Shown here: in pieces, positions 2,062-17,772 of the stretch
How the letters are laid out: every line of letters begins with the position of its first letter
How positions within the stretch are numbered: position 1 is the stretch's first letter
From: Pigmentiphaga sp. NML030171
GTDB taxonomy: Bacteria > Pseudomonadota > Gammaproteobacteria > Burkholderiales > Burkholderiaceae_B
Direction: 5' to 3'
Assembly (NCBI RefSeq): GCF_002188635.1
Contig: NZ_NINX01000045.1
Span: 1 to 32,150, forward strand
DNA: 32,150 nucleotides
Translations under genes and position numbers: made by a program
Notes under the pieces: model-generated
The model's database searches: none
Told to the model about the DNA's origin: nothing
What the model saw: the letters and a program-made list of their open reading frames with translations, nothing else

Positions 2062-2838
2062 TCAGGAAAACAGCAGCGCCGCATCCCCGGCGCCGGCCAG
2101 CCGCGAGCGGATCTGCTGGCCGCGCCGCACCAGGTAGCCGCGCGTCAGGCCGCCGGTCAGCACGACCTCGCCGGCCTTGAGCGTCGTGCCCTCGGCATGC
2201 AAGCGGTTGGCCAGCCAGGCGACGGCGAGCAGCGGATCGTCCAGCGCGTTGGCGCCGACGCCCTGGTCGGTCAATTGGTCATCGATCCACAGCTCGGCGG
2301 CCAGCGTGCGCAGGTCGCAGCCGGTCGTTACCGGCATCGGCGTACCGAGCACGTAGCGCGCCGCGGAACTGTTGTCGGCGATGTTGTCGACCGCTTTGAA
2401 GCGGTACTCGTGGTAGCGCGTATCGCACACCTCGATCGCCGCCATGAACAGCGGGGCGGCCGCCAGCACCGAGTTCCTGTCGTGCCCGCCCCCGGCGAGG
2501 TCGCGCCCGAGTGCGATCGCAATCTCCGGCTCTACCAGAGGATGAATCAGCGTATTGAAGGCAATCGTGCCGCCTTCGATGACCATGTCGGCGGTCAGGA
2601 CGCCATAGTTCGGGTGCTCGATATTCATCTGGCGGCGCATCGCCGCGCTGGTGTAGCCGAGCTTGTAGCCGGTCCTGGCGTGCCGGCGCCGCCGCAGCCT
2701 GGCCCTGGCGATCGCATATGCATCGGCCTCGTCGAGGCCGGGATAGCGCGACGACAAGGTATCGATCGTGCCGCGGCTGCATTCCGCCTCGACCAGGGAT
2801 TGGGCCAGTTCCTCGATGAGGGCAACAGACAAGGGCAT
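2062..2838 (-). CDS. 2-keto-4-pentenoate hydratase / oxalocrotonate decarboxylase family protein
   Basis: A 258-residue cytosolic member of the hydratase/decarboxylase branch of the fumarylacetoacetase fold. The metal-binding pattern is visible: LVEPEIAIAL (ExE) and MAAIEVCDTRYHEYRFK (E plus the DxR segment), followed by ADNSSAARYVLG and GEVVLTGG. It is the last gene of the catabolic operon, 14 bases after the tautomerase gene. Two other paralogs in the operon (3066-3854 and 5819-6601) match the standard DmpH and DmpE roles better, so this copy is redundant or has another substrate, such as a substituted dienoate. Its N-terminus is diverged and Arg-rich around residues 46-55. Which of hydration or decarboxylation it catalyses cannot be settled from sequence. 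Confidence 0.8.
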   Translation of the reverse strand: MPLSVALIEELAQSLVEAECSRGTIDTLSSRYPGLDEADAYAIARARLRRRRHARTGYKLGYTSAAMRRQMNIEHPNYGVLTADMVIEGGTIAFNTLIHPLVEPEIAIALGRDLAGGGHDRNSVLAAAPLFMAAIEVCDTRYHEYRFKAVDNIADNSSAARYVLGTPMPVTTGCDLRTLAAELWIDDQLTDQGVGANALDDPLLAVAWLANRLHAEGTTLKAGEVVLTGGLTRGYLVRRGQQIRSRLAGAGDAALLFS

Positions 2839-2852
2839 CGCGCGCTCCCGTC

Positions 2853-3044
2853 CTAGCGCCCCAGGTCCTTGGCCGAGACCCCGGCAATGCCCCAGTTCTC
2901 CTTCGGGACATCATGGATCCATACCCGGACGTTCTCCTTCGGCGCGCCGACCGCCTCGGACAGCGCCAGCGTGACCTTGTCGATCACCGCACGCTTTTGA
3001 TCCTCAGTGCGGCCCTCTATCATATAGATTTGTGCAAACGGCAT
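2853..3044 (-). CDS. 4-oxalocrotonate tautomerase
   Basis: A 63-codon gene. Removal of Met1 exposes the catalytic Pro1 (PFAQIYMIEGR). Arg11 and Arg39 (NVRVWIHDVP), the known substrate-binding and catalytic arginines, are in register. It converts 2-hydroxymuconate (enol) to 2-oxo-3-hexenedioate, the substrate of the decarboxylase encoded just upstream (21-base gap). Family members form hexamers of about 62 residues, matching this length. It belongs to the oxalocrotonate branch of the meta-cleavage pathway (XylH/DmpI/NahJ type). Confidence 0.95.
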   Translation of the reverse strand: MPFAQIYMIEGRTEDQKRAVIDKVTLALSEAVGAPKENVRVWIHDVPKENWGIAGVSAKDLGR

Positions 3045-3065
3045 GGCCTTTTCCTTTCTGGATGT

Positions 3066-3854
3066 TTAGACAAAACGCATGCCGACGCTGCCCATCCCCT
3101 GCATGCGCAGGGTCACGCAGTCGCCGGCCTCGACCGCTACGGCCTCGGTGATGCCGCCTGACAGAATCAGCGCGCCGGCCGGAATTTTCTGGCCGCGCTC
3201 GCCCAGATGGTTCGCCAGCATCGCAATGGCCGCTGCAGGATGGCCGAGCACCGCCGCGCCGGCACCAAAGGCCACAGGCTCGCCGTTCTTCTCGAACACG
3301 ATGCCGAGCGTGCGCAGGTCGACTTCGGACACCGGCCGCGGCTGGCCGCCGACCACGAAGCGCGCCGCCGAGGTGTTATCGGCAATCACGCTCTTGAGGT
3401 CGAACTTGAAGTCGCGGTAGCGCGAGTCGATCACCTCGATTCCGGCCATCACGAAGTCGACTGCGGCCAGCACCGAGCCGATGTGGCAGCCTGGGCCCTT
3501 CAGCGCCGTCTTCATCACGAACGCGATCTCCGGTTCGACCTTCGGGTGGATCAGCTCCGATACCTTGCATTCGCCGCCCTCGGGAATCGCGTAATAGTCG
3601 GCCATGAAGCCGAACACCGGCGTTTCGACGCCCATCTGTTTCATCTTCGCGTGCGAGGTCAGACCGGCTTTCCAGCCGACGATCTTGTTGCCGCGCGCAA
3701 CTTTGCGGCGCTGGATCTCGTCCTGGATCGCATACGCGTCGTCCCAGTCCATGTCTGGATGGGCATCGGTAATCTTGACGGTGTCCTGCCCTTCCAGCTC
3801 GCAGTTTTCCAGGTGTGCGGCCAGCTTGGCGATGGTTGCCTGGTCGAGTTTCAT
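3066..3854 (-). CDS. dmpH: 2-oxo-3-hexenedioate (4-oxalocrotonate) decarboxylase
   Basis: This 262-residue protein decarboxylates 2-oxo-3-hexenedioate to 2-hydroxypenta-2,4-dienoate in the oxalocrotonate branch. It starts [20 protein letters not shown], typical of DmpH/XylI/NahK. It shows the family's [16 protein letters not shown] segment, metal ligands in [10 protein letters not shown], and [17 protein letters not shown]. The ATG at 3852-3854 overlaps the aldolase stop in an ATGA junction, so translation is probably coupled; this fixes the start although the frame stays open upstream. In characterised pathways the decarboxylase works in a complex with the DmpE-type hydratase, which is encoded in the same operon. 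Symbol given by family and context. Confidence 0.92.
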
Positions 3855-4879
3855 ACAAGTCCCCTTTCCTTGGCCATGGTCAAGGCCGCGTCTTCGATCA
3901 TGTCTTCCTGCCCGGCCACCATGCCGCGCCGTCCCAGCTCGACCAGGATGTCGCGCGCCGGTACCTGGTACTTCGCGGCGGCGCGCTTGGCGAACAGCAG
4001 GAAGGTCGAATACACCCCTGCGTAGCCAAGCGTGAGCGCATCGCGGTCGATGCGCACCATGTGGTCCATCATCGGCAGCACGATATCCTCGGCCACGTCC
4101 ATGATCTGGTACAGGTCGACTCCGGTCTCGATGCCCATGCGGTTGCAGACGGCAACGAATACTTCCAGCGGGGTATTGCCGGCCCCGGCGCCCAGGCCGT
4201 TGGTAGAGCCGTCGATGCGGTTGGCGCCGGCTTCGATCGCCGCCAGCGAGTTGGCCACACCCATCGCCATATTGTGGTGGCCATGGAAGCCGATATCGAT
4301 CTCCGGCGCCAGGGCCGCGCGCAGCGCGCCGACCCGCTCGGTCACGCCATCCGGCAGCAGGTAGCCGGCCGAGTCGGTCACATACACGCACTGGGCGCCG
4401 TAGGACGCCATCAGCCTGGCCTGCTCGACCAGCTTTTCGGGCGTGGCCATGTGCGCCATCATCAGGAAGCCGACCGTGTACAGGCCCATCTTGCGCGCGG
4501 CAATGATGTGCTGCTCGGCTACGTCGGCTTCGGTGCAGTGGGTGGCCACGCGCACCGTGTGCAGGCCGCATTCGTGCGCGGCACGCAGGTCGTCGACCGT
4601 GCCGATGCCCGGCACCAGCAGCGAGGACACCTTGGTGTGCTTGAGGTGCGGGATCACGGCGCGAAGGTAATCGACGTCGCTGTGGCGCGGGAAGCCGTAG
4701 TTCACCGAACCGCCGCCCAGCCCGTCGCCATGCGACACTTCCAGCATCGGCATGCCGGCGTCGTCCAGTCCCTTGGCCACCGCGATCATCTGCTCGAGCG
4801 TGATCTGGTGGCGTTTCGGGTGCATCCCGTCGCGCAGGGTATTGTCGTGCAGGATGATTTTTTTACCCTTGAGGTTCAT
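3851..4879 (-). CDS. dmpG: 4-hydroxy-2-oxovalerate aldolase
   Basis: A 342-residue HMGL-like TIM barrel that cleaves 4-hydroxy-2-oxovalerate to pyruvate and acetaldehyde. The N-terminal catalytic segment [15 protein letters not shown] is intact, and the metal-binding [11 protein letters not shown] motif lies near residue 200. The next gene upstream, ending 15 bases away, encodes its channelling partner acetaldehyde dehydrogenase. In this family acetaldehyde passes through a tunnel between the two subunits. The length is normal for DmpG/BphI/MhpE. Confidence 0.96.
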
Positions 4880-4894
4880 TTTCTTCTCCTTGGA

Positions 4895-5806
4895 TCAGGC
4901 GGTGACGCGTTCGAGCGTGAGCGTGCCTTTGAGGATTTCCTCGGCAAACATTTCAGCGGTGCGTGCAGCGGCGGCGGTCATGATGTCGAGGTTGCCGGCG
5001 TATTTCGGCAGGTAGTCGCCGAGGCCTTCGACTTCCAGGAATACCGAAACGCGGTTGCCGTCGAACACCGGGCCGTTGACCAGCTTGTAGCCGGGCACGT
5101 ACTGCCGCACCTTGGCAATCATCGCGTGGATCGAGGCCGTGATTTTCTCCTGGTCGGGTTCGCTCTCGGTCAGGCAGTGCACGGTGTCGCGCATGATGAT
5201 CGGCGGTTCGGCCGGATTCAGGATGATGATCGCCTTGCTCTGTTTGGCGCCGCCGACGGTGCGGATCGCCGCCGCCGTGGTGCGGGTGAATTCGTCGATG
5301 TTCTTGCGCGTGCCCGGGCCGGCCGAGCGCGACGATGCGGTGGCGATGATTTCGCCGTATTGCACCGGCTGCACCTGGGCGATGGCTGCGACCATCGGGA
5401 TCGTCGCCTGGCCGCCGCAGGTGACCATGTTGACGTTCATCTCGCCCTTGCCGACCTGTTCCAGCAGGTTCACCGGCGGCACGCAGTAGGGACCGATGGC
5501 GGCCGGGGTCAGGTCGATCATCAGCACCCCCAGCGCGGTCAGCTTGCGCGAATTTTCGGCGTGCACATAGGCGCTGGTGGCGTCGAAGCAGATCTGTACT
5601 TCGTCGGCCAGCACGTGGGGCAGCATGCCGTCGACGCCGTCCGCGGTGGTCTTGATGCCCAGCTCGCTGGCGCGCCTGAGGCCGTCAGATGCAGGGTCGA
5701 CCCCGACCATCCAGACCGGTTCCAGCACCGGGCTGCGCAGCAGCTTGGCAAGCAGGTCGGTGCCGATATTGCCGGGGCCGATGATTGCACATTTAATTTT
5801 TGTCAT
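4895..5806 (-). CDS. dmpF: Acetaldehyde dehydrogenase (acetylating)
   Basis: This 303-residue enzyme oxidises acetaldehyde to acetyl-CoA with NAD+ and CoA. The N-terminal Rossmann motif is [13 protein letters not shown]. The catalytic Cys is C130 in [10 protein letters not shown], and [17 protein letters not shown] follows as in DmpF/BphJ/MhpF. It sits directly before the aldolase gene, the conserved order for this channelling pair, and 12 bases after the hydratase gene. All expected motifs and full length are present. Confidence 0.96.
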
Positions 5807-5818: not shown

Positions 5819-6601
5819 TTAATTAAACCGCACCGAGCAGCTGCCCAAGCCGCCGATGCTGACGCGGAAGTTGTCGCCCGCCTGGGCCGGGAACATCGCC
5901 GCCAGCGCGCCCGACAGGATCACTTCGCCGGCTTTCAGCGGGATGCCCAGCCGGCCCATGGTGTTGGCCAGCCAGGTCACCGCGTTGAGCGGCGAGCCGA
6001 GGGCGGCGGCGCCGGCGCCGGTGGCGACGATCTCGCCGTTCTTTTCCAGCACCATGCCGCACAGCGACAGGTCGATCTTGCGCGGGTCCACCGCCTGGTC
6101 GCCCAGCACGAATACGCCGCAGGAGGCGTTATCGGCCACCGTGTCCTGCACCTTAATCTTCCAGTCGCGGATGCGCGAGTCGACGATCTCGAAGCACGGC
6201 ATCACGCATTCGGTGGCGGCCAGCACGTCGGCATTCGAGATGCCCGGCCCCATCAGGTCCTTCTTCAGGATGAAGGCGATCTCGCCCTCGGCCTTTGGCT
6301 GGATCAGCGTGCCGATGTCGATCGCCTCGCCTTCGTTGTAGATCATCCCGTCGAGCATGTAGCCGAAGTCCGGCTGGTACACGCCCAGCATGTTCATCAC
6401 TGCGCGCGAGGTCACGCCGATTTTCTTGCCGATGATGCGTTCGCCGGCTTGCACGCGGCGCTCGATCATGCGCTGCTGGATGTGGTACGCGTTCTCGATC
6501 GTGATGCCGGGATGGCGGCTGGTAAGCGGGTCGACCACCGTGCGGCCGGTCAAGGCCTGGTAGAGTTCGTCGCCGAGTTGGGTGATGAGTTCTTTATCCA
6601 T
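5819..6601 (-). CDS. dmpE: 2-oxopent-4-enoate (2-hydroxypenta-2,4-dienoate) hydratase
   Basis: A 260-residue hydratase converting 2-hydroxypenta-2,4-dienoate to 4-hydroxy-2-oxovalerate. Family features seen are IIGKKIGVTSRAVMNML, PDFGYMLDGMIYNEG, metal-ligand segments KAEGEIAFIL and MPCFEIVDSRIRDWKIK, and ADNASCGVFVLG. The start MDKELITQLGDEL at 6601 lies 2 bases after the stop of the aldehyde dehydrogenase gene, so the pair is probably coupled. The order dehydrogenase-hydratase-acetaldehyde dehydrogenase-aldolase-decarboxylase-tautomerase matches classical dmp/xyl/nah lower operons. Confidence 0.93.
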   Translation of the reverse strand: MDKELITQLGDELYQALTGRTVVDPLTSRHPGITIENAYHIQQRMIERRVQAGERIIGKKIGVTSRAVMNMLGVYQPDFGYMLDGMIYNEGEAIDIGTLIQPKAEGEIAFILKKDLMGPGISNADVLAATECVMPCFEIVDSRIRDWKIKVQDTVADNASCGVFVLGDQAVDPRKIDLSLCGMVLEKNGEIVATGAGAAALGSPLNAVTWLANTMGRLGIPLKAGEVILSGALAAMFPAQAGDNFRVSIGGLGSCSVRFN

Positions 6602-6603: not shown

Positions 6604-8058
6604 TCACAGTTTGATGCAGACATTTTTCAGTTCGGTGTAGAACTCGAGCGAGTGCACCCCGCCCTCGCGCCCGATGCCAGATTGCTTGGAACCGCCGAAC
6701 GGCGTGCGCAGGTCGCGCAGGAACCACGAGTTGACCCAGACGATGCCCGCTTCGATCTGGGCGGCGACCCGGTGGGAACGCGCCAGGTTGGTGGTCCACA
6801 AGGCCGAGGCCAGCCCGTACGGGTTGTCGTTGGCGCGGGCGACCACCTCTTCCTCGGTATCGAACGGCGAAATGTGGCAGCACGGTCCGAAGATCTCTTC
6901 GCGCATCACGGTCGCCGTGTCCGGCAGGCCGGTCCAGATGGTCGGCTGCACCCACGAGCCGCCCGCGAGCTCCGACGGCATGTCGGGGATGCCGCCGCCG
7001 GTGACGACGGTAGCGCCCTCCTCGACCGCGTTGCGGTAGTACGAAAGCACCTTGTTGCGGTGTTCCTGCGAAATCAAGGGCCCCATGCCGCTGGCCGGGT
7101 CGGACGGCAGGCCGGGCTTCATCGTTTCGACCGCGGTCTTCAGGCGGGTAACGAATTCCTCGAAGACCGGACGTTCCACATACACACGCTCGGTGCCGAG
7201 GCACACCTGGCCGGCGTTGGCAAAGCACGAGCGCAGGGTGCCGGCGATGGCCTCATCCATGTCGCAATCGGCAAACACGATCGCGGCGTTCTTGCCGCCC
7301 ATCTCCATCGAGACCGGGCGCGCGCCGTCGGCGGCGGCCTTCATGATCGCGGCGCCGGTACGCGTCTCGCCGGTAAAGGTGATCGCATCGACCTGCGGAT
7401 GGGTGGTCAGGAATTCGCCGGTGGAGTCCGGCCCGAAGCCGTGCACGACGTTGAACACGCCTTTCGGCATGCCGACCTTGTTCATCACTTCGCCCAGCAA
7501 GGCCGCTGCCTGCGGCGTTTCTTCCGACGGCTTGACGACCACCGTATTGCCGCACGCCAGCGCCGGGCCCAGCTTCCAGGTCATCAGCAGGAACGGCAGG
7601 TTCCACGGGCAGATGACCGCCACCACGCCCACCGGACGCCGCAGCGAGTAGTTGAGCGAACCGCGCCCGTCGGGGGTGGCCATTTCGAAAAACTCGCCCG
7701 GGACATTCTTGATGACGTCGGCGAAGACCTTGAAGTTTGCGGCGCCGCGCGGCACGTCGATGTGACGGATGAAATGCGCCGGCTGCCCCAGGTCGGTCAT
7801 CTCGGCTTCGACGAAATCCTCGAAGCGGCGGTCGATCTCGTCGGCCACCGCGTACAGCAGGTCGACCCGGTCGGTCAGGTTCATCTTGCCCCACGGTCCG
7901 TGCAGCGCGTCGCGCGCACACTGCACGGCGCGGTCGACCAGGGCTGAGTCGGCCTCGGCGACCCGGGCGAAGACCTTGCCGTCGTACGGCGCGCTCTTGT
8001 CGAACCAGCGCTCCGACGGCACGTAGTCACCGTTGATGAAGTTCAGAATGTCTTTCAC
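6604..8058 (-). CDS. 2-hydroxymuconic semialdehyde dehydrogenase-like ALDH
   Basis: This 484-residue NAD-dependent aldehyde dehydrogenase is predicted to oxidise 2-hydroxymuconic semialdehyde to 2-hydroxymuconate (DmpC/XylG/NahI role). The cofactor/anion segment is CPWNLPFLLMTWKLGPAL, the general-base Glu is in SMEMGGKNAA, and the nucleophile is Cys in NAGQVCLGTERVYV. A GTG start at 8058 (MKDILNFINGDYV) is chosen because GGAG lies 5 bases before it and family proteins begin at this point; the frame runs a further 13 codons upstream without a ribosome site. It heads the lower-pathway block, 62 bases after the porin. 2-aminomuconate semialdehyde dehydrogenases are very similar, so the substrate rests on context. 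Confidence 0.9.
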   Translation of the reverse strand: MKDILNFINGDYVPSERWFDKSAPYDGKVFARVAEADSALVDRAVQCARDALHGPWGKMNLTDRVDLLYAVADEIDRRFEDFVEAEMTDLGQPAHFIRHIDVPRGAANFKVFADVIKNVPGEFFEMATPDGRGSLNYSLRRPVGVVAVICPWNLPFLLMTWKLGPALACGNTVVVKPSEETPQAAALLGEVMNKVGMPKGVFNVVHGFGPDSTGEFLTTHPQVDAITFTGETRTGAAIMKAAADGARPVSMEMGGKNAAIVFADCDMDEAIAGTLRSCFANAGQVCLGTERVYVERPVFEEFVTRLKTAVETMKPGLPSDPASGMGPLISQEHRNKVLSYYRNAVEEGATVVTGGGIPDMPSELAGGSWVQPTIWTGLPDTATVMREEIFGPCCHISPFDTEEEVVARANDNPYGLASALWTTNLARSHRVAAQIEAGIVWVNSWFLRDLRTPFGGSKQSGIGREGGVHSLEFYTELKNVCIKL

Positions 8059-8120: not shown

Positions 8121-9187
8121 TCAGAACAGGTGGTTGATACCGACCGAAGCCGCTTTCGTTTTGTGCTTGCCGGCAGACAGCAGCGCGCCGCGGTGTTTGG
8201 TCAGGTCCACCTCGAGGTACAGGTTGGTGCGCTTGGACAGGGCGTAATGGGCCGCCGTCATGAACATCCCACGCTTGCCGTCAGGCAGGCCGCCACCCGA
8301 GATCCTGGTGTGGTAATAGGAGCCTATTAAAGTGGTTGCAGGCGTCAAACATACTGGACGCCGCCCCAGGTCCAGCGGGTATGGCGCTCGCCGGCCGCGG
8401 CGGTCGCTACCTTGTCGTCCACATACGCCGCGGTGAAGCGTGCCTCGCCGATCTTGTAGGCCGCACCGGCCAGCCAGTGGTCGCGATCCTGGAACGACGG
8501 GTTGGCGGTCGTACGCATATTCGGTTTGTGCTTGGTGTACACGGCGCCGAGCAGCACCGGACCGCTGGCGTAGCTCAGGCCGAGCGCGCTGGCGGAGCCG
8601 TCGCTGTGGCTTCCGGCCTGCTCGCCGGCGGCGTATTCGGCGCGCGCGGTCCAGGCGCCGAAAGTGCCGGTGTACTGGATGTCATTGTTGAAGCGGCCCA
8701 CGCCGGCATTCGCCGCAGGCGTGGTGGCGGTCGGCGTGCCCAGCGTCTGCGAGCCCGGCACCGCGATTGCCAGCGGCGTGATGCCGGTGTAGTTGGAGCC
8801 GAACGGGGACAGCGGGGCGGCGACCTTGAACGCCACGCTGAACTGGCGGCCGACGTCGACCGCACCCCACTTGCCGGCCAGGCCGACGGTGGCGGTACGC
8901 TGGAACAGCTGGCCGACGTTGTTGTCCAGGGTGCCGGTACCGAGATTGAAGCCGGCTTCCAGGTGGAAGCGCGCCGACAGGCCGCCGCCCAGGTTTTCGG
9001 TGCCGCGGAACGTCAGGCGGTTGTTGTACGAGGTGCCGTTCGAGCCGACCGTCACGCGGTCTTCGCCATCGTTGGAGATATAGCGCAGGCCGCCGTCGAC
9101 CGAACCGGTCACGCTGACGTTGCTTTGGGCATGGGCCGAGCCTGCAAAAGCGCTGCCGAGGGCGAGCGCAAGGAATGTTTCTTTCAT
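8121..9187 (-). pseudogene. Outer-membrane porin (Burkholderia-type), single frameshift
   Basis: A general-diffusion porin of the betaproteobacterial 16-strand family. It has a signal peptide MKETFLALALGSAFAGSAHA cut before QSN, then RLTFRGTENLGGGLSARFHLE, and a C-terminal strand ending in Phe (SVGINHLF), needed for outer-membrane assembly. The frame breaks at 8345-8349: GGVQYV meets TGA, while LTPATTLIGSYYHTR continues in the next frame. Adding one T to the TTT run would restore a 355-residue porin, the expected size. The start at 9187 is set by the signal peptide. It lies between the importer and lower-pathway genes, so it probably served entry of the aromatic acid. Either a true loss or a homopolymer error. 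Confidence 0.85.
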
Positions 9188-9307
9188 GGTTGTCCGGACT
9201 GAATCGATTTTTTTTGCCAGCAGGGGATCACCGCCGCACACCATTGATGTGCGACGCTCTGGATTGCTGTAGGGGTTGTGGGCGGCAGCCTGGGCTGCCG
9301 CGGGAAC

Positions 9308-10372: not shown

Positions 10373-10418
10373 TGTTACTGTCTCCGTTATGGTTGGTATA
10401 TGCAACATAAGGCGCTTT

Positions 10419-11254
10419 TTAGCGCTCGGTCTTCCAGGGCACCACGATTCGTTCTACTTCATCCATCACAAGCGTGAACACGAAGCCGATCAGGGCAATC
10501 ATCAACAGGCCGACGTACATGGTGTCCACCGACAGGATTTCCCAGGCGTTCCAGATCATGTAGCCGAGGCCGCTGTGGGCGCCGACCATCTCGGCCAGCG
10601 CGATCAGGATCAGTCCCATGCCGACGCCAAGCTTGATGCCCGTCATGATGAACGGCAGCGCGCCGGGCACCGCGATGGTGCGGAACACCTGCCAGCGGCT
10701 GGCCTTGAAGTTGCTGCCGACGTCGAGGTAGATCTTGTTGATCTCGCGCACGCCGGTGACGGCGTTGATCAGTACCGGGAAGAACACGCCGATCGCCACC
10801 ATCGCGATCTTGGAACCTTCGCCCAGGCCGAAGATCAGCAGCAGCAGTGGCATCAGCGCGCTTTTCGGCACCGGATAGGTGGCCGCGATGAGCGGGTCGA
10901 CAATTGCGCGCAGCGGGCGGTAGAGACCCATCAGGACGCCGATGATCAGCGCCGGCACCCCGCCAACGAGGAAGCCCCAGAACAGCCGCTGCAGGCTGGC
11001 CCGGGAGTTGGCCCACAATTCGCCCGACTCGGCCAGCACCAGCAGCGTCTGGAAAATCGAGGTGGGCGCCGGGAAGAAGCGGGTGTCGATGAAGCCGGTG
11101 CGCGCGGCGATCTCCCAAATCAGCAGCAGCACGAGCGGCGACAGCACGCCGAGCAGGCGGTCGCGCGAGCCGGCGCTCAGCTTTCTGGTCTTGAAGCTGG
11201 CGCGGTTGGCGGCGGACACTTGCGCCGGCGCCGGTGGGAGTTCGACTACCTTCA

Positions 11255-11258
<4 letters not shown>
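10419..11258 (-). CDS. ABC transporter permease (SsuC/TauC type)
   Basis: A 279-residue inner-membrane permease of the BPD_transp_1 family with about six hydrophobic segments (such as LLGVLSPLVLLLIWEIAA and MVAIGVFFPVLINAVTG). The coupling-helix region is FRTIAVPGALPFIMTGIKLGVG, the EAA-like loop that contacts the ATPase. The ATG at 11258 overlaps the ATPase stop as ATGA and is preceded by a perfect AGGAGG, which fixes the start. It pairs with the adjacent ATPase and binding protein to form a complete importer. Confidence 0.92.
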
Positions 11259-12130
<872 letters not shown>

Positions 12131-12213: not shown

Positions 12214-12960
12214 TTACCTGATATTCGCCCGGTCGGACCCGCTCTGTTCCGGGTCGCCATGCGTCAGGAATTCCCACAAGCGTTCGAAGATCCCGCCCGT
12301 AGACACGGCGCGCGCACTGGCCTCGGCGTCCGACAGCAGCGTCCCGCCCTGCCCGCCGCCCGCGGCGCGCACGGTCAGTTCGAGCGCCGCCGCCTCTTCC
12401 AGCAGGAACGACAGGCCTGCCGCCTCCTCGATGCTGCTGCCCGCGACCACGGCGCCATTGCCGCGCATGACAATCGCGCGGGCCCCGCCGAGCAGCGCGG
12501 CGATCGCCTGTGCCTTGTCGTCGTCGCGGACCAGTTGCGGATCGTCCCAGAGCGGCGGGTGCGGCGCAAAGTACGAGCCGTTGCCGTGGCGGGCCGACGG
12601 CGTCAGGCGCATGGTCGACAGCGCGATCACGCGCGCCGGTAGGATGCGGCAGATGCCGCCGACGTCGGGCCGCACCTTGTAGATCTGCTGGTGCAGCCGG
12701 ACTTCGCCCAGCACGCCCTGCGGCAACGGTCCCTCGACCGGCACCACGGTGCCCTGGTCGTCAGCGTCGAGGCAGCCCATTGGGCGCGCCGCGCACACCA
12801 GGAACTCGGTGTCGTTCAGGCGCGCGCTGACGTGGCCGAACGCGTGCACCAGGCCGTGCCGGCCCATCGCGCGCGCAGCCTTGCGCACCTGGGCCTGCAG
12901 GTGCGCAAGGCGTTCTTCACTAGCGCCGGCCGCCATCGCTTGTTCCGTCGTTGCCTGCAT
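12214..12960 (-). CDS. Class II aldolase/adducin-fold protein, probable ring-cleavage-product decarboxylase
   Basis: A 248-residue protein of the class II aldolase/adducin fold. The family segment GEVRLHQQIYKVRPDVG (E86 at the catalytic-Glu position) is clear. The zinc HxH is replaced by CRI (C104, I106), and the third His position of the usual NHG motif reads GNG (168 region). Non-aldolase members include CmtD (2-hydroxy-3-carboxymuconate-semialdehyde-type decarboxylase of p-cumate degradation), PhtC-type dihydroxyphthalate decarboxylases and CloR/NovR. It lies 12 bases after the extradiol dioxygenase gene, so CmtD/DhbB-like decarboxylation of the carboxylated ring-cleavage product is the best role. 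Start at 12960, with GGAGACACG 2 bases upstream. Function is inferred from context and fold. Confidence 0.75.
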   Translation of the reverse strand: MQATTEQAMAAGASEERLAHLQAQVRKAARAMGRHGLVHAFGHVSARLNDTEFLVCAARPMGCLDADDQGTVVPVEGPLPQGVLGEVRLHQQIYKVRPDVGGICRILPARVIALSTMRLTPSARHGNGSYFAPHPPLWDDPQLVRDDDKAQAIAALLGGARAIVMRGNGAVVAGSSIEEAAGLSFLLEEAAALELTVRAAGGGQGGTLLSDAEASARAVSTGGIFERLWEFLTHGDPEQSGSDRANIR

Positions 12961-12972
12961 CGTGTCTCCTGG

Positions 12973-13839
12973 TCAGCTCTTAAATTCGGGAATATCCGGA
13001 CGCGATCCCCACATGCACAGCGAGGTCGATGCCTCGAAGGGGAACTGGCGCGGCCTGACCGTCGACATCTCTTCTTCGGTGAACACGCGCACGCCGGTCG
13101 AGTATTCGTAGGTCATGCCGTCCGGTCCGGCAAAGTACAGGAACATCGCGCCTGAGGTCGGGTGGCGCCCCGGCCCGAACACGATCCGCACGCCCTTCTC
13201 CTTGAGCATGTAGTAGGCGCGCATGATATCGTCGATACCCTCGACCTGATGGTTGATGTGCTGGACCCCGGCGAAGCTGGATGGAAACAGCGCGATCTTG
13301 TGGTGGACCGGGTCGATCCGCAGCAGCGGCGAGTTGCCCAGGCGGTCGCTCACCCTGGCGCTCATGACCTGGGTCCAGAATTTTTCGTCGCGCGCCGGAT
13401 CGCTGGAGCGCAGCCCGATATGGCTGAAGCCGGTAATGCCGGCGTCGCGCGACGGGAAATAGCGCCGCCCGCTGTGGTGCGGACGGACTACCAGGTCGAT
13501 GCTGTTGCCGCTCGGGTCGATGAAATTGACCAGCCCCTCGACCCGGCGCTGCTCGCACTCTTCGCGCGAGCCGGCCTTGACCCGGTAGCCGGCGTTGTCA
13601 AGCTCGGCGGCCGCGGCGTCGATGCCGGCGGCGTCGGCCAGTTCGAAGCCGGTGGTATGGTCGTTGCTGTCGCCTTCGAAGTACACCAGCGTGTGATCGC
13701 GGCTGTCGCTGCGGAAGTAGCGCGCACCCTGTTCGGTGCGCACCAGTTCGAGCCCGAGCACCTCTTGAGCGTAGCGGGTCGACTCTTCAATGTTGCGGGT
13801 ACCGAGCCGTACGTACCGTACATCGTGCAAATCAATCAT
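12973..13839 (-). CDS. Type I extradiol dioxygenase, CmtC/DhbA-like (carboxylated catechol 3,4-cleavage)
   Basis: A 288-residue two-domain VOC (glyoxalase-fold) extradiol dioxygenase. Iron ligands in the C-terminal domain are H140 (GFSHIGL), H194 (VQHINHQV) and E245 (TYEYSTG). The segments HSGRRYFPSRDAG and FGPGRHPTSGAMFLYF, and the ending MWGSRPDIPEF, resemble 2,3-dihydroxy-p-cumate and 2,3-dihydroxybenzoate 3,4-dioxygenases rather than catechol 2,3-dioxygenases; this is from memory of the families. The ATG at 13839 (MIDLHDVRYV) is preferred to an in-frame TTG two codons earlier because GAGG sits 8 bases before it. The product should be a 2-hydroxy-3-carboxymuconic semialdehyde, matched by the decarboxylase encoded next. 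Exact substrate not proven. Confidence 0.85.
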   Translation of the reverse strand: MIDLHDVRYVRLGTRNIEESTRYAQEVLGLELVRTEQGARYFRSDSRDHTLVYFEGDSNDHTTGFELADAAGIDAAAAELDNAGYRVKAGSREECEQRRVEGLVNFIDPSGNSIDLVVRPHHSGRRYFPSRDAGITGFSHIGLRSSDPARDEKFWTQVMSARVSDRLGNSPLLRIDPVHHKIALFPSSFAGVQHINHQVEGIDDIMRAYYMLKEKGVRIVFGPGRHPTSGAMFLYFAGPDGMTYEYSTGVRVFTEEEMSTVRPRQFPFEASTSLCMWGSRPDIPEFKS

Positions 13840-13860: not shown

Positions 13861-14871
13861 TCAGCTGGTGGTGACGAAGCGCTCGGCGTGCACGCGCGCC
13901 GGGTCCATGCCGTTCTCGCGCAGCCACGCGGCGGCCGCTTCGACCATCGGCGGCGGGCCGCACAGGTAGGCGTCGCATTCGCCGCCGTGCAACAGTTCGG
14001 GGCGCAGCAAGCGGGTGACGTGTCCGGCAGGGCCCTGCCAGCCGGTCTCCGCTACCGCGATGCGCTCCACCGTCAGGCGCAGGCTCTGGCCGAGCCGCTC
14101 CAGTTCGCTCGCGTTGAAAAACTCGGAGGCTTCGTTGACGCCGTAGATCAGGTGCACCGGCTGGTCGGCCGCACCGGCGCGCACCATGCTGCGCAGCATG
14201 CTGAGCATGGGTGCAAGGCCGGTGCCGCCGGCGATCATCAGGATCGGGCGGCGCAGCGCGCGCAGGTAGAAGTGGCCGGCCGGTCCCTTGATGCGGATGT
14301 CGTCGCCAACCTTTGCGCGCTCGCGCAGGTAGTCGCTCATCACGCCTTGCGGATACACCTTGAGGAAAAATTCGAGCTGCTGCTCCGCCGGCATGTTCGC
14401 AAACGAATACGAACGCTCCGCGCCGCCTGCACCGGGCACTTCCATGTGCACGTACTGGCCGGGCAGGAAGTCGATGTCGCCCGCCGTCAGCTGCACCACC
14501 ATTCGCTTGACGCTCGAGGACACCGATTCGACCGCCACCACCCTGGCGTCGAGCCACTGCGGCGCATGTTGGGCGGTCAGGAAGCGCGACGAATACGGCA
14601 GCTCGACCGTGCACGGCGTTTTCGCCTTCATCTTGCACAGCAGCGTGTAGCCGATCGCCAGCTCGGCATCCGACAAGGCTTCGTCGCTGTAGTCGTCGAC
14701 CCGGAATTCGCCTTGCGTGCAAAGCGCCTTGCAGGCGCCGCACGCGCCTTCGAGGCAGTCGTGCTCGAGCCGGATGTTCGAGCGGTAGGCCGCCTGGTAG
14801 ACGATCTCATCGGCTCGGCTCGAAAACCTGACCGATTTTCCGTCTTCAAAGATTGCCGTTATCTGGTGCAC
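13861..14871 (-). CDS. Dioxygenase reductase (ferredoxin-FAD-NAD, BenC/XylZ type)
   Basis: A 336-residue electron-transfer component that passes electrons from NADH to the Rieske oxygenase. An N-terminal plant-type [2Fe-2S] domain has C39, C44, C47 and C79 (DCLEGACGACKALC, LLCK). A flavin domain follows with RSYSFANMP near 153-161. The NAD domain has AGGTGLAPMLSML near 214-226 and ends with YLCGPPPMVEAA. This fused order is that of class IB reductases for benzoate, toluate, anthranilate and halobenzoate dioxygenases, so no separate ferredoxin is needed and none is seen. The gaps of 11 bases to the dehydrogenase and 21 to the extradiol gene support one transcript. Confidence 0.94.
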   Translation of the reverse strand: MHQITAIFEDGKSVRFSSRADEIVYQAAYRSNIRLEHDCLEGACGACKALCTQGEFRVDDYSDEALSDAELAIGYTLLCKMKAKTPCTVELPYSSRFLTAQHAPQWLDARVVAVESVSSSVKRMVVQLTAGDIDFLPGQYVHMEVPGAGGAERSYSFANMPAEQQLEFFLKVYPQGVMSDYLRERAKVGDDIRIKGPAGHFYLRALRRPILMIAGGTGLAPMLSMLRSMVRAGAADQPVHLIYGVNEASEFFNASELERLGQSLRLTVERIAVAETGWQGPAGHVTRLLRPELLHGGECDAYLCGPPPMVEAAAAWLRENGMDPARVHAERFVTTS

Positions 14872-14882: not shown

Positions 14883-15917
14883 TCAGGCCGGAACAATGAT
14901 GGGCTTGACCGCCAGGCCTTGCAGGATCAGGTCGAACCCGGAAGTTGCCTCGGACATCGGCAGCACGTGGCTGACCAGCGGCCTGAGGTCGACCTTGCCG
15001 TCATAGATGAGCGGCATGGCGCGCTCCCACGACTGCCAGATGCGGCGGCCGTGGATGTTGTGTACCTTCGGGCACTTCAGTACCCACTGGCTGAAGTCGA
15101 CGTTGATCGGCTGCGCCGGCGCCCCGACCAGGCGGAAGTCGCCGCCCTTGGTGAGCGACTCGAACACGTTGCGAAAGCCGGCCTCGGACCCCGAGAACTC
15201 GATCCCGACATCGGCCCCGACGCCATTGGTAAAGTCCTTCACCGCGTTGACGACGTCCTCGTCACCGACCTTGACCATGCGGTCGGCGCCCATCAGCTCG
15301 GCCGTCTTCAGGCGCAGCGGGTTGATGTCGCTGGCGATGATCCTGCGCGCGCCCAGCGCCCGCGCCACCGCGATCGTCATCAGGCCGATCGGGCCGCAGC
15401 CGTTGACCAGCACCGTCTGCCCGCTGACGCCCGAGCCTTCGAGCGCGGCGTGGACGCCGATGCCGAACGGCTCGAGCATGGCCGCGATGTTATGGTCGAG
15501 CGGCTGCGTGATCACCCATGCGATCCGCGCCGGCACCACGATATATTCGGCAAAGCCGCCGTCGATGTCGATGCCGGGATAGGTCAGGTTCTCGCACAGG
15601 TGCTCCTGGCCGCGATGGCACTGCACGCAGTTATTGCAGTAGATGTGGCTTTCGAGCGCGACGTGGTCGCCGACCTGGATGTTGCTGACGGCGCTGCCGA
15701 CCTGGTCGACAATGCCGCTGACCTCGTGCCCGATGACGCGAGGCAGCGTCATGCGGCGCTTGATGCGGGGCGACCATTTATAGATCTGCATGTCGGTGCC
15801 GCAGATGCCTGCCGCGCGCACCTTGATCCGGACTTCGTCGGCCTTGGGCAGCGCGACGGCCACTTCGGACAACTCGAGCCCGTTCTCGCCTGGCGACACT
15901 TTACTTAGCGCTAACAT
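14883..15917 (-). CDS. Zinc-dependent MDR dehydrogenase, possible cis-dihydrodiol dehydrogenase
   Basis: A 344-residue medium-chain dehydrogenase of the threonine/butanediol dehydrogenase type. Catalytic zinc ligands are C39 (ICGTD) and H64-E65 (GHEVSG). The structural zinc site is C94, C97, C100, C108 (YCNNCVQCHRGQEHLC). The Rossmann motif is VNGCGPIGLM (171-180), with an acidic residue in IASDIN favouring NAD. It sits between the oxygenase beta and reductase genes (14- and 11-base gaps), where the cis-diol dehydrogenase of such operons is expected. Classical BenD/CmtB enzymes are short-chain dehydrogenases, so this is an unusual replacement if that is its role. Oxidation of another alcohol intermediate is the alternative. 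Confidence 0.85.
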   Translation of the reverse strand: MLALSKVSPGENGLELSEVAVALPKADEVRIKVRAAGICGTDMQIYKWSPRIKRRMTLPRVIGHEVSGIVDQVGSAVSNIQVGDHVALESHIYCNNCVQCHRGQEHLCENLTYPGIDIDGGFAEYIVVPARIAWVITQPLDHNIAAMLEPFGIGVHAALEGSGVSGQTVLVNGCGPIGLMTIAVARALGARRIIASDINPLRLKTAELMGADRMVKVGDEDVVNAVKDFTNGVGADVGIEFSGSEAGFRNVFESLTKGGDFRLVGAPAQPINVDFSQWVLKCPKVHNIHGRRIWQSWERAMPLIYDGKVDLRPLVSHVLPMSEATSGFDLILQGLAVKPIIVPA

Positions 15918-15931
15918 ATTTTTCTGCTTTC

Positions 15932-16429
15932 TCAGAGGTGATAGACGTCGACCGTGCCTTGCAGCTTTTCGTCGATGATGACCGTCACTTTGCGGGCGAT
16001 GCGCAGTGCGCCGTCGACCCGGCGCAGCGTGTATTTGTAGCGTCCGCCGCGGGTGGTCTCGCCGCGCGCACCCCAGGCGTGCACCAGCCAGGTCGCGGCC
16101 ACCTCGACTGTGTCGGCGTCGCCGCCGGTCACAAGGATGTTCGAGGTCAGGTGCGTGGTGCGGTCGACCGGCAGCGAGGCGAACGAATCTTCGCTCTCGA
16201 TGCGGAACACGCGCTCTTCGAGGCCGGCACGGGTCGGACTGTAGATCAGGCTCAGCTGCGTGGTCGGATCATCGGTCAGCTTGCTCTCCGACTGCCAGGC
16301 CGGCACGAAGTACACCGCGTCTTCGGTGTACAGCGCGAGCCAGTCGCGCCAGCGCTGTTCGTCGAGGAAGATCGCCTCGCGCGCCAGCAGGTTGCAGACT
16401 TCGGCGTAGATTGTTGCGTCGTTCAGCAT
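15932..16429 (-). CDS. Ring-hydroxylating dioxygenase, small (beta) subunit
   Basis: A 165-residue beta subunit with the SnoaL/NTF2-like fold (Ring_hydroxyl_B). Visible family segments are the N-terminal EAIFLDEQRWRDWLALYTED, AVYFVPAW and TTHLTSNILVTGGD. It carries no metal sites; in the family it forms the trimeric base of an alpha3beta3 oxygenase. The start lies 2 bases after the alpha-subunit stop, so the subunits are probably made in equal amounts. BenB/XylY/AntB/CbdB types are the nearest relatives by layout. Confidence 0.93.
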   Translation of the reverse strand: MLNDATIYAEVCNLLAREAIFLDEQRWRDWLALYTEDAVYFVPAWQSESKLTDDPTTQLSLIYSPTRAGLEERVFRIESEDSFASLPVDRTTHLTSNILVTGGDADTVEVAATWLVHAWGARGETTRGGRYKYTLRRVDGALRIARKVTVIIDEKLQGTVDVYHL

Positions 16430-16431
16430 CG

Positions 16432-17772
16432 TTATTTACCCTTGCTCATCAGTTTCAGCCAGTGGCGGTAGTAGCCCTGGTAGAAAGTATCGTGGTCCCA
16501 GTTGCGCGATACCGCGACGGCGTTGCAGCCGATCTCCTGCAGTTCCTCGCACTGCTCGCCCGGGATGGTGGACTTGGCGCCGCGGCTGAAATCGTTCCAC
16601 TGGCTCTTGCGGCCGTGGCTGCCAAGCGAGGTGTCTTCCAGGGCCGCGATGTCGTCCGAGGTCGCCATGCCGGTCGGCAGATAGAAGTCGAGGAATTTGC
16701 GCAGACGCGCGGCGCGCGCATTGGCGCTCTCCCCCTTCGGCGCGACGCACTGGATCCGGACCTCGGCCAGTTCGGCCGAGATCGGGCGGAACACGCGGAT
16801 CTGGGTCGATGGCTGGTCCATCAGCAACATGTTGGGGAACAGGTAGAGGTTGCGGCCGCGGCCGAGCATCCAGCCGACTTTCGCTTCGCCGAACTCGGCG
16901 ACCAGGCGGTCCTTGGCTTCGTACAGCGGCGCCGCCTCGGGCGTGGTGCGCTTCGCCCACACCACGTTGTGGCCGTTGCCCAGGTCGGCCGAGCCGGATT
17001 CCACGTCGCCCGTAATGCGCCCGGCCTCGGTCTTGCCGGCGCCGCTGTAGCCACCGGCTTCCTCGCGCTTGGCCATGGTCGCAGCGAACACGCGGTGGAC
17101 GGTGCTGACATGGTAGCCGTCGACGCCGTTTTCCGCGCCCATCTTCCAGTTGCCGCGGATGACGTAGGTCGATTCCCCGGGCAGCACTTCCAGCCCGTCG
17201 GGCGACTGGTCGGCCAGCAGGTCGATCATTGCCGCCGCGGCGCCTAGGTGGTCCTTGAGATCGGGAACGTCGGCGACCAGGCTGCCGAACACGAAGCCCT
17301 TGTAGGTATCGACGCGGGCGATGTCTTTCAGGCTGAACTTGGAGCGGCAGCTTTCCTCGCCCGGATAGGCGCCGCTTGCCTCGCTCTTGATCTTGATGCA
17401 GCGGCCGCTGTCGGCATAGGTCCAGCCGTGGAAGCGGCAGGTGAAGGTTCTTGCCGTGCCTTTGCGCAGCGGCGCCAGCAAGGTGCCGCGATGCGAACAC
17501 GCATTGATGAAGCCGCCCACGGTGCCGTCCTTGCGGCGGTTGACGACGACCGGCTGGCGTCCCATGTAGGTGGTGATGTAGTCACCTTCGTTCGGGATTT
17601 CGCTTTCGTGGCAGAGATAGATCCACGAGCCTTCGAAGATGTTTTCCATTTCGGCATCGAAGATCCCCTGGTCGATATGGATCAGGCGATCGACCATGAA
17701 GGTGGAGGTTTGCGGCTCGTCGCGGATCAGCGTGGCCGGATCGATTTCTGGTGTCTGGTTTCGGTTTATCAT
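16432..17772 (-). CDS. Ring-hydroxylating dioxygenase, large (alpha) subunit (benzoate/anthranilate class)
   Basis: A 446-residue catalytic subunit. The Rieske cluster is bound by C92, H94, C112 and H115 (ACSHRGTLLA, TFTCRFHGW; spacing CxH-17-CxxH). The mononuclear iron site has H221 and H226 in NGVDGYHVSTVH, with bridging D218; the third ligand is probably D373 or D374 in TSDDIAALED. With the separate beta subunit and fused reductase this is a class IB (two-component) system of the benzoate/toluate/anthranilate/halobenzoate group. It is the first gene of the operon, with AAGG 6 bases before the ATG. Because a dehydrogenase and a carboxyl-tolerant extradiol enzyme follow, the product is probably a carboxylated cis-diol, not the 1-carboxy-1,2-diol of BenABC. 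Substrate unknown. Confidence 0.94.
   Translation of the reverse strand: MINRNQTPEIDPATLIRDEPQTSTFMVDRLIHIDQGIFDAEMENIFEGSWIYLCHESEIPNEGDYITTYMGRQPVVVNRRKDGTVGGFINACSHRGTLLAPLRKGTARTFTCRFHGWTYADSGRCIKIKSEASGAYPGEESCRSKFSLKDIARVDTYKGFVFGSLVADVPDLKDHLGAAAAMIDLLADQSPDGLEVLPGESTYVIRGNWKMGAENGVDGYHVSTVHRVFAATMAKREEAGGYSGAGKTEAGRITGDVESGSADLGNGHNVVWAKRTTPEAAPLYEAKDRLVAEFGEAKVGWMLGRGRNLYLFPNMLLMDQPSTQIRVFRPISAELAEVRIQCVAPKGESANARAARLRKFLDFYLPTGMATSDDIAALEDTSLGSHGRKSQWNDFSRGAKSTIPGEQCEELQEIGCNAVAVSRNWDHDTFYQGYYRHWLKLMSKGK

What the first reader, a model, noticed from the sequence alone, without database searches (positions are those of the whole stretch)
2062..17772. Candidate uncharacterised aromatic acid pathway: class IB dioxygenase feeding 3,4-extradiol cleavage and late decarboxylation
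Seen: one packed minus-strand set with dioxygenase alpha/beta/reductase, a dehydrogenase, a CmtC/DhbA-like extradiol enzyme, a class II aldolase-fold protein, and all enzymes from 2-hydroxymuconic semialdehyde to acetyl-CoA. Known: BenABC-type systems give 1,2-diols that lose CO2 on rearomatisation, while cumate and 2,3-dihydroxybenzoate routes keep the carboxyl until after ring cleavage. Inference: this operon joins a benzoate-class oxygenase to a 2,3-dihydroxybenzoate-type route. There is no ring-product hydrolase (CmtE/DmpD type), so the ring-cleavage product should be an aldehyde, not a ketone, arguing against alkyl-substituted substrates such as cumate. Benzoate 2,3-dioxygenation, or a substituted benzoate losing its substituent, would fit.
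Basis: partly seen in the sequence, partly recalled or inferred. Interest (0 to 1): 0.8.

Follow-up and report, generated by a model that had tools for sequence, protein, structure and literature searches.

The report
Phthalate-type ring-opening operon, new parts
A bacterium carries one gene set that appears to import an aromatic acid, most likely the plasticiser breakdown product phthalate, turn it into 2,3-dihydroxybenzoate and open the ring, using parts that differ from the one described pathway of this kind; the substrate is inferred, not shown.

Summary
Seventeen minus-strand genes at 2062-17772 encode a BenA-like oxygenase with reductase, a zinc MDR dehydrogenase, a DhbA-type extradiol dioxygenase with its decarboxylase, an ABC importer with porin, and the 2-hydroxymuconic semialdehyde pathway, including a small tautomerase. 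No ring-product hydrolase is among them. The genome is most likely Pigmentiphaga. Nearly the same operon, without the porin, is in a Herminiimonas MAG. The oxygenase alpha forms a clade apart from BenA/XylX (100/100). Both clade-bearing genomes found outside the genus by the alpha search also carry the rare DhbA-type enzyme, so 2,3-dihydroxybenzoate is the likely ring-cleavage substrate. Best reading: a second phthalate 2,3-dioxygenase pathway, with parts unlike those of the one described (opa). The substrate is inferred.

The parts
16432..17772 (-). oxygenase alpha subunit (446 aa), BenA-like but a separate clade; Fe-ligand candidates H221, H226, D374; Rieske CxH 92-94 and CxxH 112-115; clade residues R227 and P321
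15932..16429 (-). oxygenase beta subunit (165 aa)
14883..15917 (-). zinc-type MDR dehydrogenase (344 aa), inferred dihydrodiol dehydrogenase; zinc motifs present
13861..14871 (-). BenC-like single-protein reductase (2Fe-2S, FAD, NAD domains)
12973..13839 (-). type I extradiol dioxygenase of the DhbA type (288 aa from the ATG at 13839; P0011 starts two codons earlier at a TTG, 13845)
12214..12960 (-). class II aldolase-fold decarboxylase (DhbB type, 248 aa)
11255..12130 (-). ABC importer ATPase
10419..11258 (-). ABC importer permease (alternative GTG start at 11288)
9308..10408 (-). ABC importer substrate-binding protein (SsuA/NMT1 family)
8345..9244 (-). porin; frame ends early in this assembly, a porin-like C-terminal stretch lies in another frame within 8124-8249
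6604..8058 (-). 2-hydroxymuconic semialdehyde dehydrogenase (GTG start)
5819..6601 (-). 2-oxopent-4-enoate hydratase
4895..5806 (-). acetaldehyde dehydrogenase (acetylating)
3851..4879 (-). 4-hydroxy-2-oxovalerate aldolase
3066..3854 (-). 4-oxalocrotonate (2-oxo-3-hexenedioate) decarboxylase
2853..3044 (-). 4-oxalocrotonate tautomerase (63 aa)
2062..2838 (-). third hydratase/decarboxylase-family gene, below the four curated cutoffs scored, role unknown

Best explanation
The operon takes up and degrades an aromatic dicarboxylate, most likely o-phthalate, through 2,3-dihydroxybenzoate. Steps: (1) porin and ABC importer bring in the dianion (inferred). (2) The two-component BenA/BenC-like oxygenase adds O2 at the carboxyl-bearing carbon and its free neighbour (C2/C3 in phthalate numbering) (inferred). 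(3) The MDR enzyme oxidises the cis-diol, which loses that carboxyl as CO2 and gives 2,3-dihydroxybenzoate (inferred). (4) The DhbA-type extradiol enzyme cuts between C3 and C4 to 3-carboxy-2-hydroxymuconate semialdehyde. (5) The DhbB-type class II aldolase-fold enzyme decarboxylates it to 2-hydroxymuconate semialdehyde. Steps 4-5 rest on family, gene order and co-occurrence. (6) HMS dehydrogenase, tautomerase, decarboxylase, hydratase, aldolase and acetaldehyde dehydrogenase give pyruvate and acetyl-CoA. In step 6 the five larger enzymes pass equivalog cutoffs; the tautomerase passes one equivalog cutoff of five and one subfamily cutoff. It works like the opa pathway of Pseudomonas sp. PTH10, with other parts at oxygenase, electron transfer, dehydrogenase, decarboxylase and uptake.
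For: Families and order. Nearly the same order in L031 (alpha 77, beta 75, MDR 78, reductase 72, extradiol 80, decarboxylase 65, ATPase 77, permease 78, SBP 68, HMSD 68%). The alpha-beta-MDR-reductase cassette recurs in G480 (56/46/58/45%). Co-occurrence: clade alpha in 2 of 369 class genomes (own, G480) and 2 of 399 order genomes (own, G190); DhbA-type extradiol at E<=1e-100 in 2 of 369 (the same two) and 9 of 399 (including own and G190). Importer: 7 of the 30 plasmid records listed for the SBP (82 in all) have 42% or more. Of these, EbN1 plasmid 2 has it near two CoA transferases, UbiD/UbiX, a porin and TAXI-TRAP. Two Caballeronia loci have it behind a porin with homologues of 4,5-dihydroxyphthalate decarboxylase (only PDB match 9jp7, 1e-81; NK8), a Rieske oxygenase (best 9ina, unnamed substrate, 1e-144; then 7fhr, putative phthalate 4,5-dioxygenase, 6e-101; NK8) and 4,5-dihydroxyphthalate dehydrogenase (best 7wzd, 4e-83; C. 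insecticola). ATPase 73-75, permease 64-67, SBP 52-53% to the window in these three. PMC13040137 (passages): the characterised Burkholderia o-phthalate ABC has one permease, one ATPase and one SBP, with a co-transcribed porin in B. multivorans, the same make-up as here; TAXI-TRAP also takes up o-phthalate, and G480 has TAXI-TRAP genes near both its cassette and its extradiol pair. BoxB is present, BenA over cutoff is not.
Against: No substrate was tested. The other 4 of the 7 SBP relatives are not in clear o-phthalate clusters, and 53% SBP identity need not mean the same ligand. The Caballeronia clusters are called phthalate-type from PDB names only; the decarboxylase homologue hits no Pfam or NCBIfam model and its family has 11 matches in the window's own genome. 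That genome and 9 of the 10 other genus genomes hold a 75% relative of it, in the own genome with a 71% Rieske relative about 7 kb away, so a phthalate 4,5-type route may already exist. DhbA-type extradiol enzymes are not bound to DHB routes without hydrolase: relatives of 65% (L017) and 57% (L019) stand in clusters with another Rieske oxygenase and an alpha/beta hydrolase. The MDR role rests on position alone: its nearest plasmid relatives (46-47%) include a gene before the benzaldehyde dehydrogenase gene of pWW0, a plasmid whose annotated diol dehydrogenase is another gene; G480 has an SDR after its reductase; the own C1 paralogue has no MDR beside it, only a 26% one about 6 kb beyond its reductase. 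Only 1 of 80 extradiol loci has this operon. The porin frame is broken.
Confidence: 0.45

Rival explanations
1. Another substituted benzoate feeds the same route: isophthalate attacked at C1/C2, or an ortho-substituted benzoate (sulfo-, amino-, halo-, hydroxybenzoate) attacked at C2/C3, each giving 2,3-dihydroxybenzoate.
For: The DHB node is well supported. The importer is of the SsuA/NMT1 type, which includes sulfonate importers. The clade paralogue in the own genome has no MDR gene directly beside it, as expected if a first product re-aromatises by itself.
Against: Amino-, halo- or sulfo-substituents leave without a dehydrogenase (established chemistry, recalled), yet the MDR gene sits inside the oxygenase cassette in the window, L031 and G480. 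The importer points to phthalate-type clusters.
Confidence: 0.3
2. Benzoate 2,3-dioxygenation: the oxygenase makes cis-2,3-dihydroxy-2,3-dihydrobenzoate, the MDR enzyme makes 2,3-dihydroxybenzoate, and the rest follows. This is the first reader's first choice and would be the first natural pathway through that diol.
For: Candidates for every enzyme such a route needs are in one operon. PMC12442788 (parts 1, 3, 4 and 5 of 8 read) speculates that a missing HMS dehydrogenase is why P. citronellolis EB200 cannot grow on benzoate this way; the window has that gene. The clade differs from BenA/XylX at two positions fixed in each group, so regiochemistry may differ.
Against: Known benzoate oxygenase pathways attack only 1,2 (PMC12442788). 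The genome has BoxB. Importers of this kind are described for phthalate (PMC13040137, passages). OpaA, which feeds the same node, did not consume benzoate (PMC6362003).
Confidence: 0.15
3. A catechol pathway: the oxygenase is an ordinary benzoate or anthranilate 1,2-dioxygenase giving catechol, and the extradiol enzyme is a catechol 2,3-dioxygenase.
For: BenA, BenB and BenC are the closest NCBIfam models and the lower pathway is the catechol meta pathway.
Against: The Ben equivalog cutoffs are missed (466.8 vs 781; 122.1 vs 225.6; 329.2 vs 430). Alpha is apart from the BenA/XylX clade (no AntA row was in the tree). The extradiol enzyme is far from catechol 2,3-dioxygenase (66.9 vs 320.2), and the DhbB-type decarboxylase would have no task.
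Confidence: 0.05

Closest known systems
opa pathway, o-phthalate 2,3-dioxygenase route, Pseudomonas sp. PTH10 (PMC6362003)
   Same: Oxygenase, diol dehydrogenase, DhbA-type extradiol, decarboxylase, HMS lower pathway; passes through 2,3-dihydroxybenzoate (shown there, proposed here).
   Different: opa: three-component oxygenase (alpha about 30% to BenA), BenD-like dehydrogenase, metal-dependent-hydrolase decarboxylase, TAXI-TRAP, HMS hydrolase gene. Window: BenC-like two-component oxygenase (alpha 41-44% to 8 BenA/XylX rows), MDR dehydrogenase, class II aldolase-fold decarboxylase, ABC plus porin, no hydrolase.
dhb genes, 2,3-dihydroxybenzoate meta pathway, Pseudomonas reinekei MT1 (as cited in PMC6362003; original not seen)
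   Same: Extradiol enzyme, class II aldolase decarboxylase and lower-pathway gene set.
   Different: PMC6362003 says genes converting o-phthalate to DHB were never reported for MT1; the window adds oxygenase, reductase, dehydrogenase and importer. DhbA sequence not held, so identity not measured.
benABCD/xylXYZL benzoate/toluate 1,2-dioxygenase
   Same: Alpha, beta, single reductase in one operon; Fe-ligand columns and R326 kept.
   Different: No SDR diol dehydrogenase; MDR in its place; W to R at 227 and F to P at 321; extradiol enzyme not of the catechol type.
p-cumate cmt pathway (described in PMC12442788)
   Same: 2,3-dioxygenation, ring cleavage with the carboxyl still on, then decarboxylation.
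   Different: No ring-product hydrolase in the window; HMS dehydrogenase instead.
Burkholderia o-phthalate ABC importer with porin (PMC13040137, passages)
   Same: One ATPase, one permease, one SBP, porin beside them.
   Different: Its sequence was not held or compared; here the importer lies inside the catabolic operon.

Membership tests
Benzoate 1,2-dioxygenase (BenA equivalog TIGR03229) | Score above the curated cutoff | tested here: not met
   466.8 vs 780.95 bits
Benzoate 1,2-dioxygenase (BenA equivalog TIGR03229) | Groups with BenA/XylX | tested here: not met
   8 clade rows and 8 BenA/XylX rows separate at 100/100 each
Benzoate 1,2-dioxygenase (BenA equivalog TIGR03229) | SDR diol dehydrogenase (BenD) in the operon | tested here: not met
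   The dehydrogenase between the oxygenase genes is an MDR
2,3-dihydroxybenzoate 3,4-dioxygenase (DhbA/OpaC type) | Type I extradiol fold with 2-His-1-Glu candidates | tested here: met
   Glyoxalase/dioxygenase domain; H142, H196/H199 and E247 (P0011 numbering) invariant in 5 aligned sequences, window plus 4 relatives; ligand assignment recalled
2,3-dihydroxybenzoate 3,4-dioxygenase (DhbA/OpaC type) | Followed by a class II aldolase decarboxylase, with HMS lower pathway, as in dhb | tested here: met
   Window; decarboxylase directly downstream in 50 of 80 relatives, HMSD of 50% or more in 55 of 80 loci; dhb gene roles from PMC6362003 Table 1
2,3-dihydroxybenzoate 3,4-dioxygenase (DhbA/OpaC type) | Identity to DhbA AFN52421 or OpaC | not tested
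   Sequences not held
2,3-dihydroxybenzoate 3,4-dioxygenase (DhbA/OpaC type) | Activity on 2,3-dihydroxybenzoate | not testable with these tools
   Needs assay
opa phthalate 2,3-dioxygenase pathway | Separate ferredoxin and ferredoxin reductase | tested here: not met
   One BenC-like protein with 2Fe-2S, FAD and NAD domains
opa phthalate 2,3-dioxygenase pathway | BenD-like SDR dehydrogenase | tested here: not met
   MDR
opa phthalate 2,3-dioxygenase pathway | Metal-dependent-hydrolase decarboxylase | tested here: not met
   Aldolase_II domain
opa phthalate 2,3-dioxygenase pathway | o-Phthalate converted to 2,3-dihydroxybenzoate | not testable with these tools
   Needs assay
p-cumate (cmt) pathway | Ring-product hydrolase in the operon | tested here: not met
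   None among the 17 operon genes
L-threonine 3-dehydrogenase | Score above curated cutoff | tested here: not met
   338.3 vs 380 and 332.8 vs 458.35 bits

The most novel reading that the evidence does not exclude
A natural benzoate pathway by 2,3-dioxygenation: the clade oxygenase makes cis-2,3-dihydroxy-2,3-dihydrobenzoate and a zinc MDR enzyme, of a family not known to me for this task, makes 2,3-dihydroxybenzoate, which is then cleaved at 3,4. PMC12442788 (2025) says this diol occurs in no known pathway and leaves open whether a benzoate route through it exists.
Probability: 0.15. Interest if true: 0.8.

Novelty: new variant of a known kind. Interest (0 to 1): 0.5.

Why it matters
A March 2026 review (PMC13040137, passages seen) says the phthalate 2,3-dioxygenase route has so far been described only in Pseudomonas sp. 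PTH10. If o-phthalate is the substrate, this operon is a second, separately assembled version with a simpler electron chain and a dehydrogenase of another superfamily, in Burkholderiales. If benzoate is the substrate, it answers a question left open in PMC12442788. Either way one expression experiment decides, and the MDR gene is a candidate for a new class of cis-dihydrodiol dehydrogenase.

Tried and rejected
Catechol pathway: rejected on cutoffs and tree. p-Cumate-type route: rejected for the window, no hydrolase. MDR as L-threonine dehydrogenase: cutoffs missed; the annotated tdh relatives among the 20 plasmid records listed are 36-39%, while a gene in the pWW0 upper operon is 47% (the name xylW is recalled).

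Active-site argument: R227 and P321 are fixed in 8 of 8 clade rows, and W and F in 8 of 8 BenA/XylX rows. I first took R227 as a second carboxylate binder. PMC9060491 (passages) says the helix from the second Fe-ligand His onward forms part of the TPADO site, but I had no coordinates, so this stays a clade mark only. Structure prediction was not run.

Decarboxylase: the class II aldolase HxH metal motif (recalled) is absent in the window, but also in 11 of 11 relatives that I aligned (11 of the 52 loci among L031-L110 with this gene), so it is a family trait and not damage.

Papers: chemical names with commas cannot be searched; two searches returned 0 and say nothing about the literature. The 5 papers listed were seen as a listing only; none is named as an MDR cis-diol dehydrogenase study. 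Searches were seen as listings only.

Context counts come from a simple gene caller that favours ORFs matching the window; genes were missed (dmpH in L031 appeared only, and a reverse-strand ORF stands where its aldolase should be), and many loci are cut by contig ends.

Co-occurrence caveat: the own genome is in both samples; without it alpha is in 1 of 368 (class) and 1 of 398 (order) and the extradiol in 1 of 368 and 8 of 398. L031 and L076 were found through the extradiol enzyme and are not independent. The C1-type alpha in G002, G003 and G006-G009 was found by the alpha search too; DhbA presence was not tested in those genomes.


Full report
What is there. The window is a whole 32150-base contig (C31) of a 5.86 Mb genome. 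The genus is most likely Pigmentiphaga: another locus of the genome, C7, matches P. kullae K24 at 94.4% over 16864 aligned bases, the longest match among 80 loci (names). Seventeen genes run on the minus strand from 17772 to 2062 with gaps of -4 to 83 bp, except 286 bp after the porin frame. In order of reading they are oxygenase alpha, beta, zinc MDR dehydrogenase, BenC-like reductase, extradiol dioxygenase, class II aldolase-fold protein, ABC ATPase, permease, substrate-binding protein, porin, HMS dehydrogenase, hydratase, acetaldehyde dehydrogenase, aldolase, 4-oxalocrotonate decarboxylase, a 63-aa tautomerase and a third hydratase-family gene. Five lower-pathway enzymes pass their equivalog cutoffs; the tautomerase passes one equivalog cutoff of five and the subfamily cutoff; the last gene passes none of four. 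No ring-product hydrolase is among the 17.

The oxygenase. Alpha is closest to BenA models but far below the cutoff (466.8 vs 780.95 bits; beta 122.1 vs 225.55; reductase 329.2 vs 430). In a tree of 23 alpha rows, the window, L031, the own-genome C1 paralogue, two other genus rows, G190, L076 and G480 form one group, and eight BenA/XylX rows another, each with support 100/100; some outside rows are long-branched and their place is unsure. Identity of the window row to the eight BenA/XylX rows is 41-44%, and of all clade rows 39-47%. All 8 clade rows have R at 227, directly after the second Fe-ligand His, and P at 321; all 8 BenA/XylX rows have W and F there; the 7 other rows have neither pair. 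R326, the column that matches TPADO R309 by my own counting through NDO (TPADO residues from PMC9060491 passages), is kept in 23 of 23 rows. AntA, CbdA, CmtAb and OpaAa sequences were not held, so the tree does not test those. The clade is rare: E<=1e-150 in 2 of 399 order genomes, E<=1e-140 in 2 of 369 class genomes, and in 7 of 11 genus genomes, where the window form is only in the own genome and the rest are the 68-69% C1 type; in 268 family genomes it is in the same 7.

The extradiol enzyme and its partner. The extradiol protein is far from catechol 2,3-dioxygenase (66.9 vs 320.2 bits). Of 249 confirmed relatives in named genomes the best 80 were kept, at 64-80% identity. The decarboxylase gene is directly downstream in 50 of 80; HMSD of 50% identity or more is in 55 of 80; 26 of 80 hold decarboxylase, HMSD, acetaldehyde dehydrogenase and aldolase. 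Several Pseudomonas loci (for example L072, L079) have extradiol, decarboxylase, HMSD, hydratase, 4-oxalocrotonate decarboxylase, acetaldehyde dehydrogenase, aldolase in that order. By the gene roles in PMC6362003 Table 1 and text this is the dhb gene set. Only L031 and L076 of the 80 have an alpha of this clade within the fetched DNA; L076 has clade alpha and beta directly before the extradiol, without MDR. The entry enzymes of the other 78 were not identified. On plasmids, L018 has a FAD-monooxygenase-like gene about 1.2 kb upstream (judged from N-terminal sequence), and L017 and L019 have other Rieske oxygenases with an alpha/beta hydrolase. So the same extradiol family also serves routes with a hydrolase, and the DHB assignment rests on the whole operon, not on this protein alone.

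Linkage of oxygenase and extradiol. In the 369 class genomes, the two with the clade alpha (own, G480) are the same two that have the DhbA-type extradiol at E<=1e-100. In the 399 order genomes, both with the clade alpha (own, G190) are among the nine with the extradiol. In G480 the two gene groups lie on different contigs, each near TAXI-TRAP genes; in G190 the extradiol has no adjacent DhbB-type gene. So the link does not depend on adjacency. Numbers are small: without the own genome it is one genome in each sample.

Nearly the same operon elsewhere. L031, a Herminiimonas MAG contig of 15404 bases, has a divergent regulator-like gene (LysR type by its sequence) and then alpha, beta, MDR, reductase, extradiol, decarboxylase, ATPase, permease, SBP, HMSD, hydratase, dmpH (seen) and acetaldehyde dehydrogenase. 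It has no porin between SBP and HMSD. No regulator was seen next to the operon in the window; a TctC-type binding protein starts on the other strand at 18022.

Which substrate. Three lines bear on this. First, chemistry: known benzoate oxygenase pathways attack the carboxyl-bearing carbon and its neighbour (PMC12442788, part 1). On o-phthalate the same attack followed by dehydrogenation and CO2 loss gives 2,3-dihydroxybenzoate, which the Opa enzymes make in Pseudomonas sp. PTH10 (PMC6362003, parts 1-3 of 6 read). Benzoate would need attack at 2,3, known as an activity of p-cumate dioxygenase on benzoate (PMC12442788, parts 1, 3, 4, 5 of 8 read). Second, transport: of 30 plasmid records listed for the SBP (82 in all), seven have 42% or more. 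EbN1 plasmid 2 carries it near two CoA transferases, UbiD/UbiX pairs, a porin and TAXI-TRAP, which fits the anaerobic phthalate genes of that species described in PMC13040137 (passages), though that text did not name this locus. Caballeronia NK8 and C. insecticola carry it behind a porin, with homologues of 4,5-dihydroxyphthalate decarboxylase and of a Rieske oxygenase (tested in NK8; best match 9ina has no substrate in its name, 7fhr is second) and of 4,5-dihydroxyphthalate dehydrogenase (tested in C. insecticola). Arthrobacter and R. fascians carry it near a Rieske protein (the R. fascians one matches 9ina best and 7fhr second, 1.9e-89) and a distant MDR, in R. fascians also near an alpha/beta/PdxA set; Phyllobacterium has another Rieske oxygenase and class II aldolases; for Rhizobium WYJ-E13 no Rieske gene is listed in the stretch. 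Third, redundancy: BoxB is over its cutoff (911.6 vs 499.1) and no BenA match is, so benzoate may well go by Box; the other Box genes were not searched. Against this, the own genome also holds a 75% relative of the NK8 decarboxylase homologue and a 71% Rieske relative about 7 kb from it, so it may already have a 4,5-type route for a phthalate.

The dehydrogenase. The MDR sits between beta and reductase in the window, L031 and G480. It has zinc motifs (C39, H64, E65; C94, C97, C100, C108; positions, roles recalled), fails the threonine dehydrogenase cutoffs, and its nearest plasmid relatives are 46-47%, among them a gene before the benzaldehyde dehydrogenase gene of pWW0. No other diol dehydrogenase candidate was seen in the operon; its activity is not shown. 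G480 also has an SDR directly after the reductase.

Verdict. I put o-phthalate first (0.45), another substituted benzoate second (0.30), benzoate third (0.15). It works like the opa pathway but is not a member of it: separate ferredoxin, SDR dehydrogenase and hydrolase-type decarboxylase are not among the operon genes. Novelty: new variant of a known kind. PMC13040137 (passages) calls PTH10 the only case described so far of phthalate 2,3-dioxygenation.

Noticed in passing
window 8124-9244, minus strand: The porin frame ends at 8345 (299 aa), while a porin-like C-terminal stretch lies in another frame within 8124-8249: a broken gene or an assembly error.
   Followed up: partly
window 1-2000: G+C falls to 55.5% and the stretch holds a transposase-HTH gene (1270-1623) and an MFS fragment (1669-1995): a likely mobile-element border at the contig end.
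   Followed up: partly
window 2062-2838: Third copy of the hydratase/decarboxylase family, below the four cutoffs scored; task unknown.
   Followed up: partly
window 18022-19972, plus strand: A TctC-type binding protein and a TauD/TfdA-family dioxygenase stand divergent from the operon.
   Followed up: no
L020 (own C1) 9129-13048: 69% alpha paralogue with reductase and a LysR-like gene but no MDR or extradiol gene directly beside it; 7 of 11 genus genomes hold this type.
   Followed up: partly
L138 4323-5924; L023 11873-13426; L024 13029-14651: Sulfatase-family genes (below the curated cutoffs) stand near the DhbA-type pair of G480 and near Rieske oxygenases twice in the own genome (the L024 one is judged by its N-terminal sequence only).
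   Followed up: no
L145, L147, L148, L149: A Rieske protein, an MDR (27-28% to the window's) and a small unknown protein recur near relatives of the same ABC importer in four plasmids of two phyla (the LigXa_C domain was checked in L148 only).
   Followed up: partly
L139 (G190 C35): DhbA-type extradiol without a DhbB-type neighbour; a second VOC gene and UbiD-like genes stand nearby (UbiD-like judged from N-terminal sequence).
   Followed up: no
L017 and L019 (plasmids): Relatives of the extradiol enzyme (65% and 57%) sit with other Rieske oxygenases (PdxA-type or SDR dehydrogenase) and an alpha/beta hydrolase, so related cores serve other aromatic acids.
   Followed up: partly
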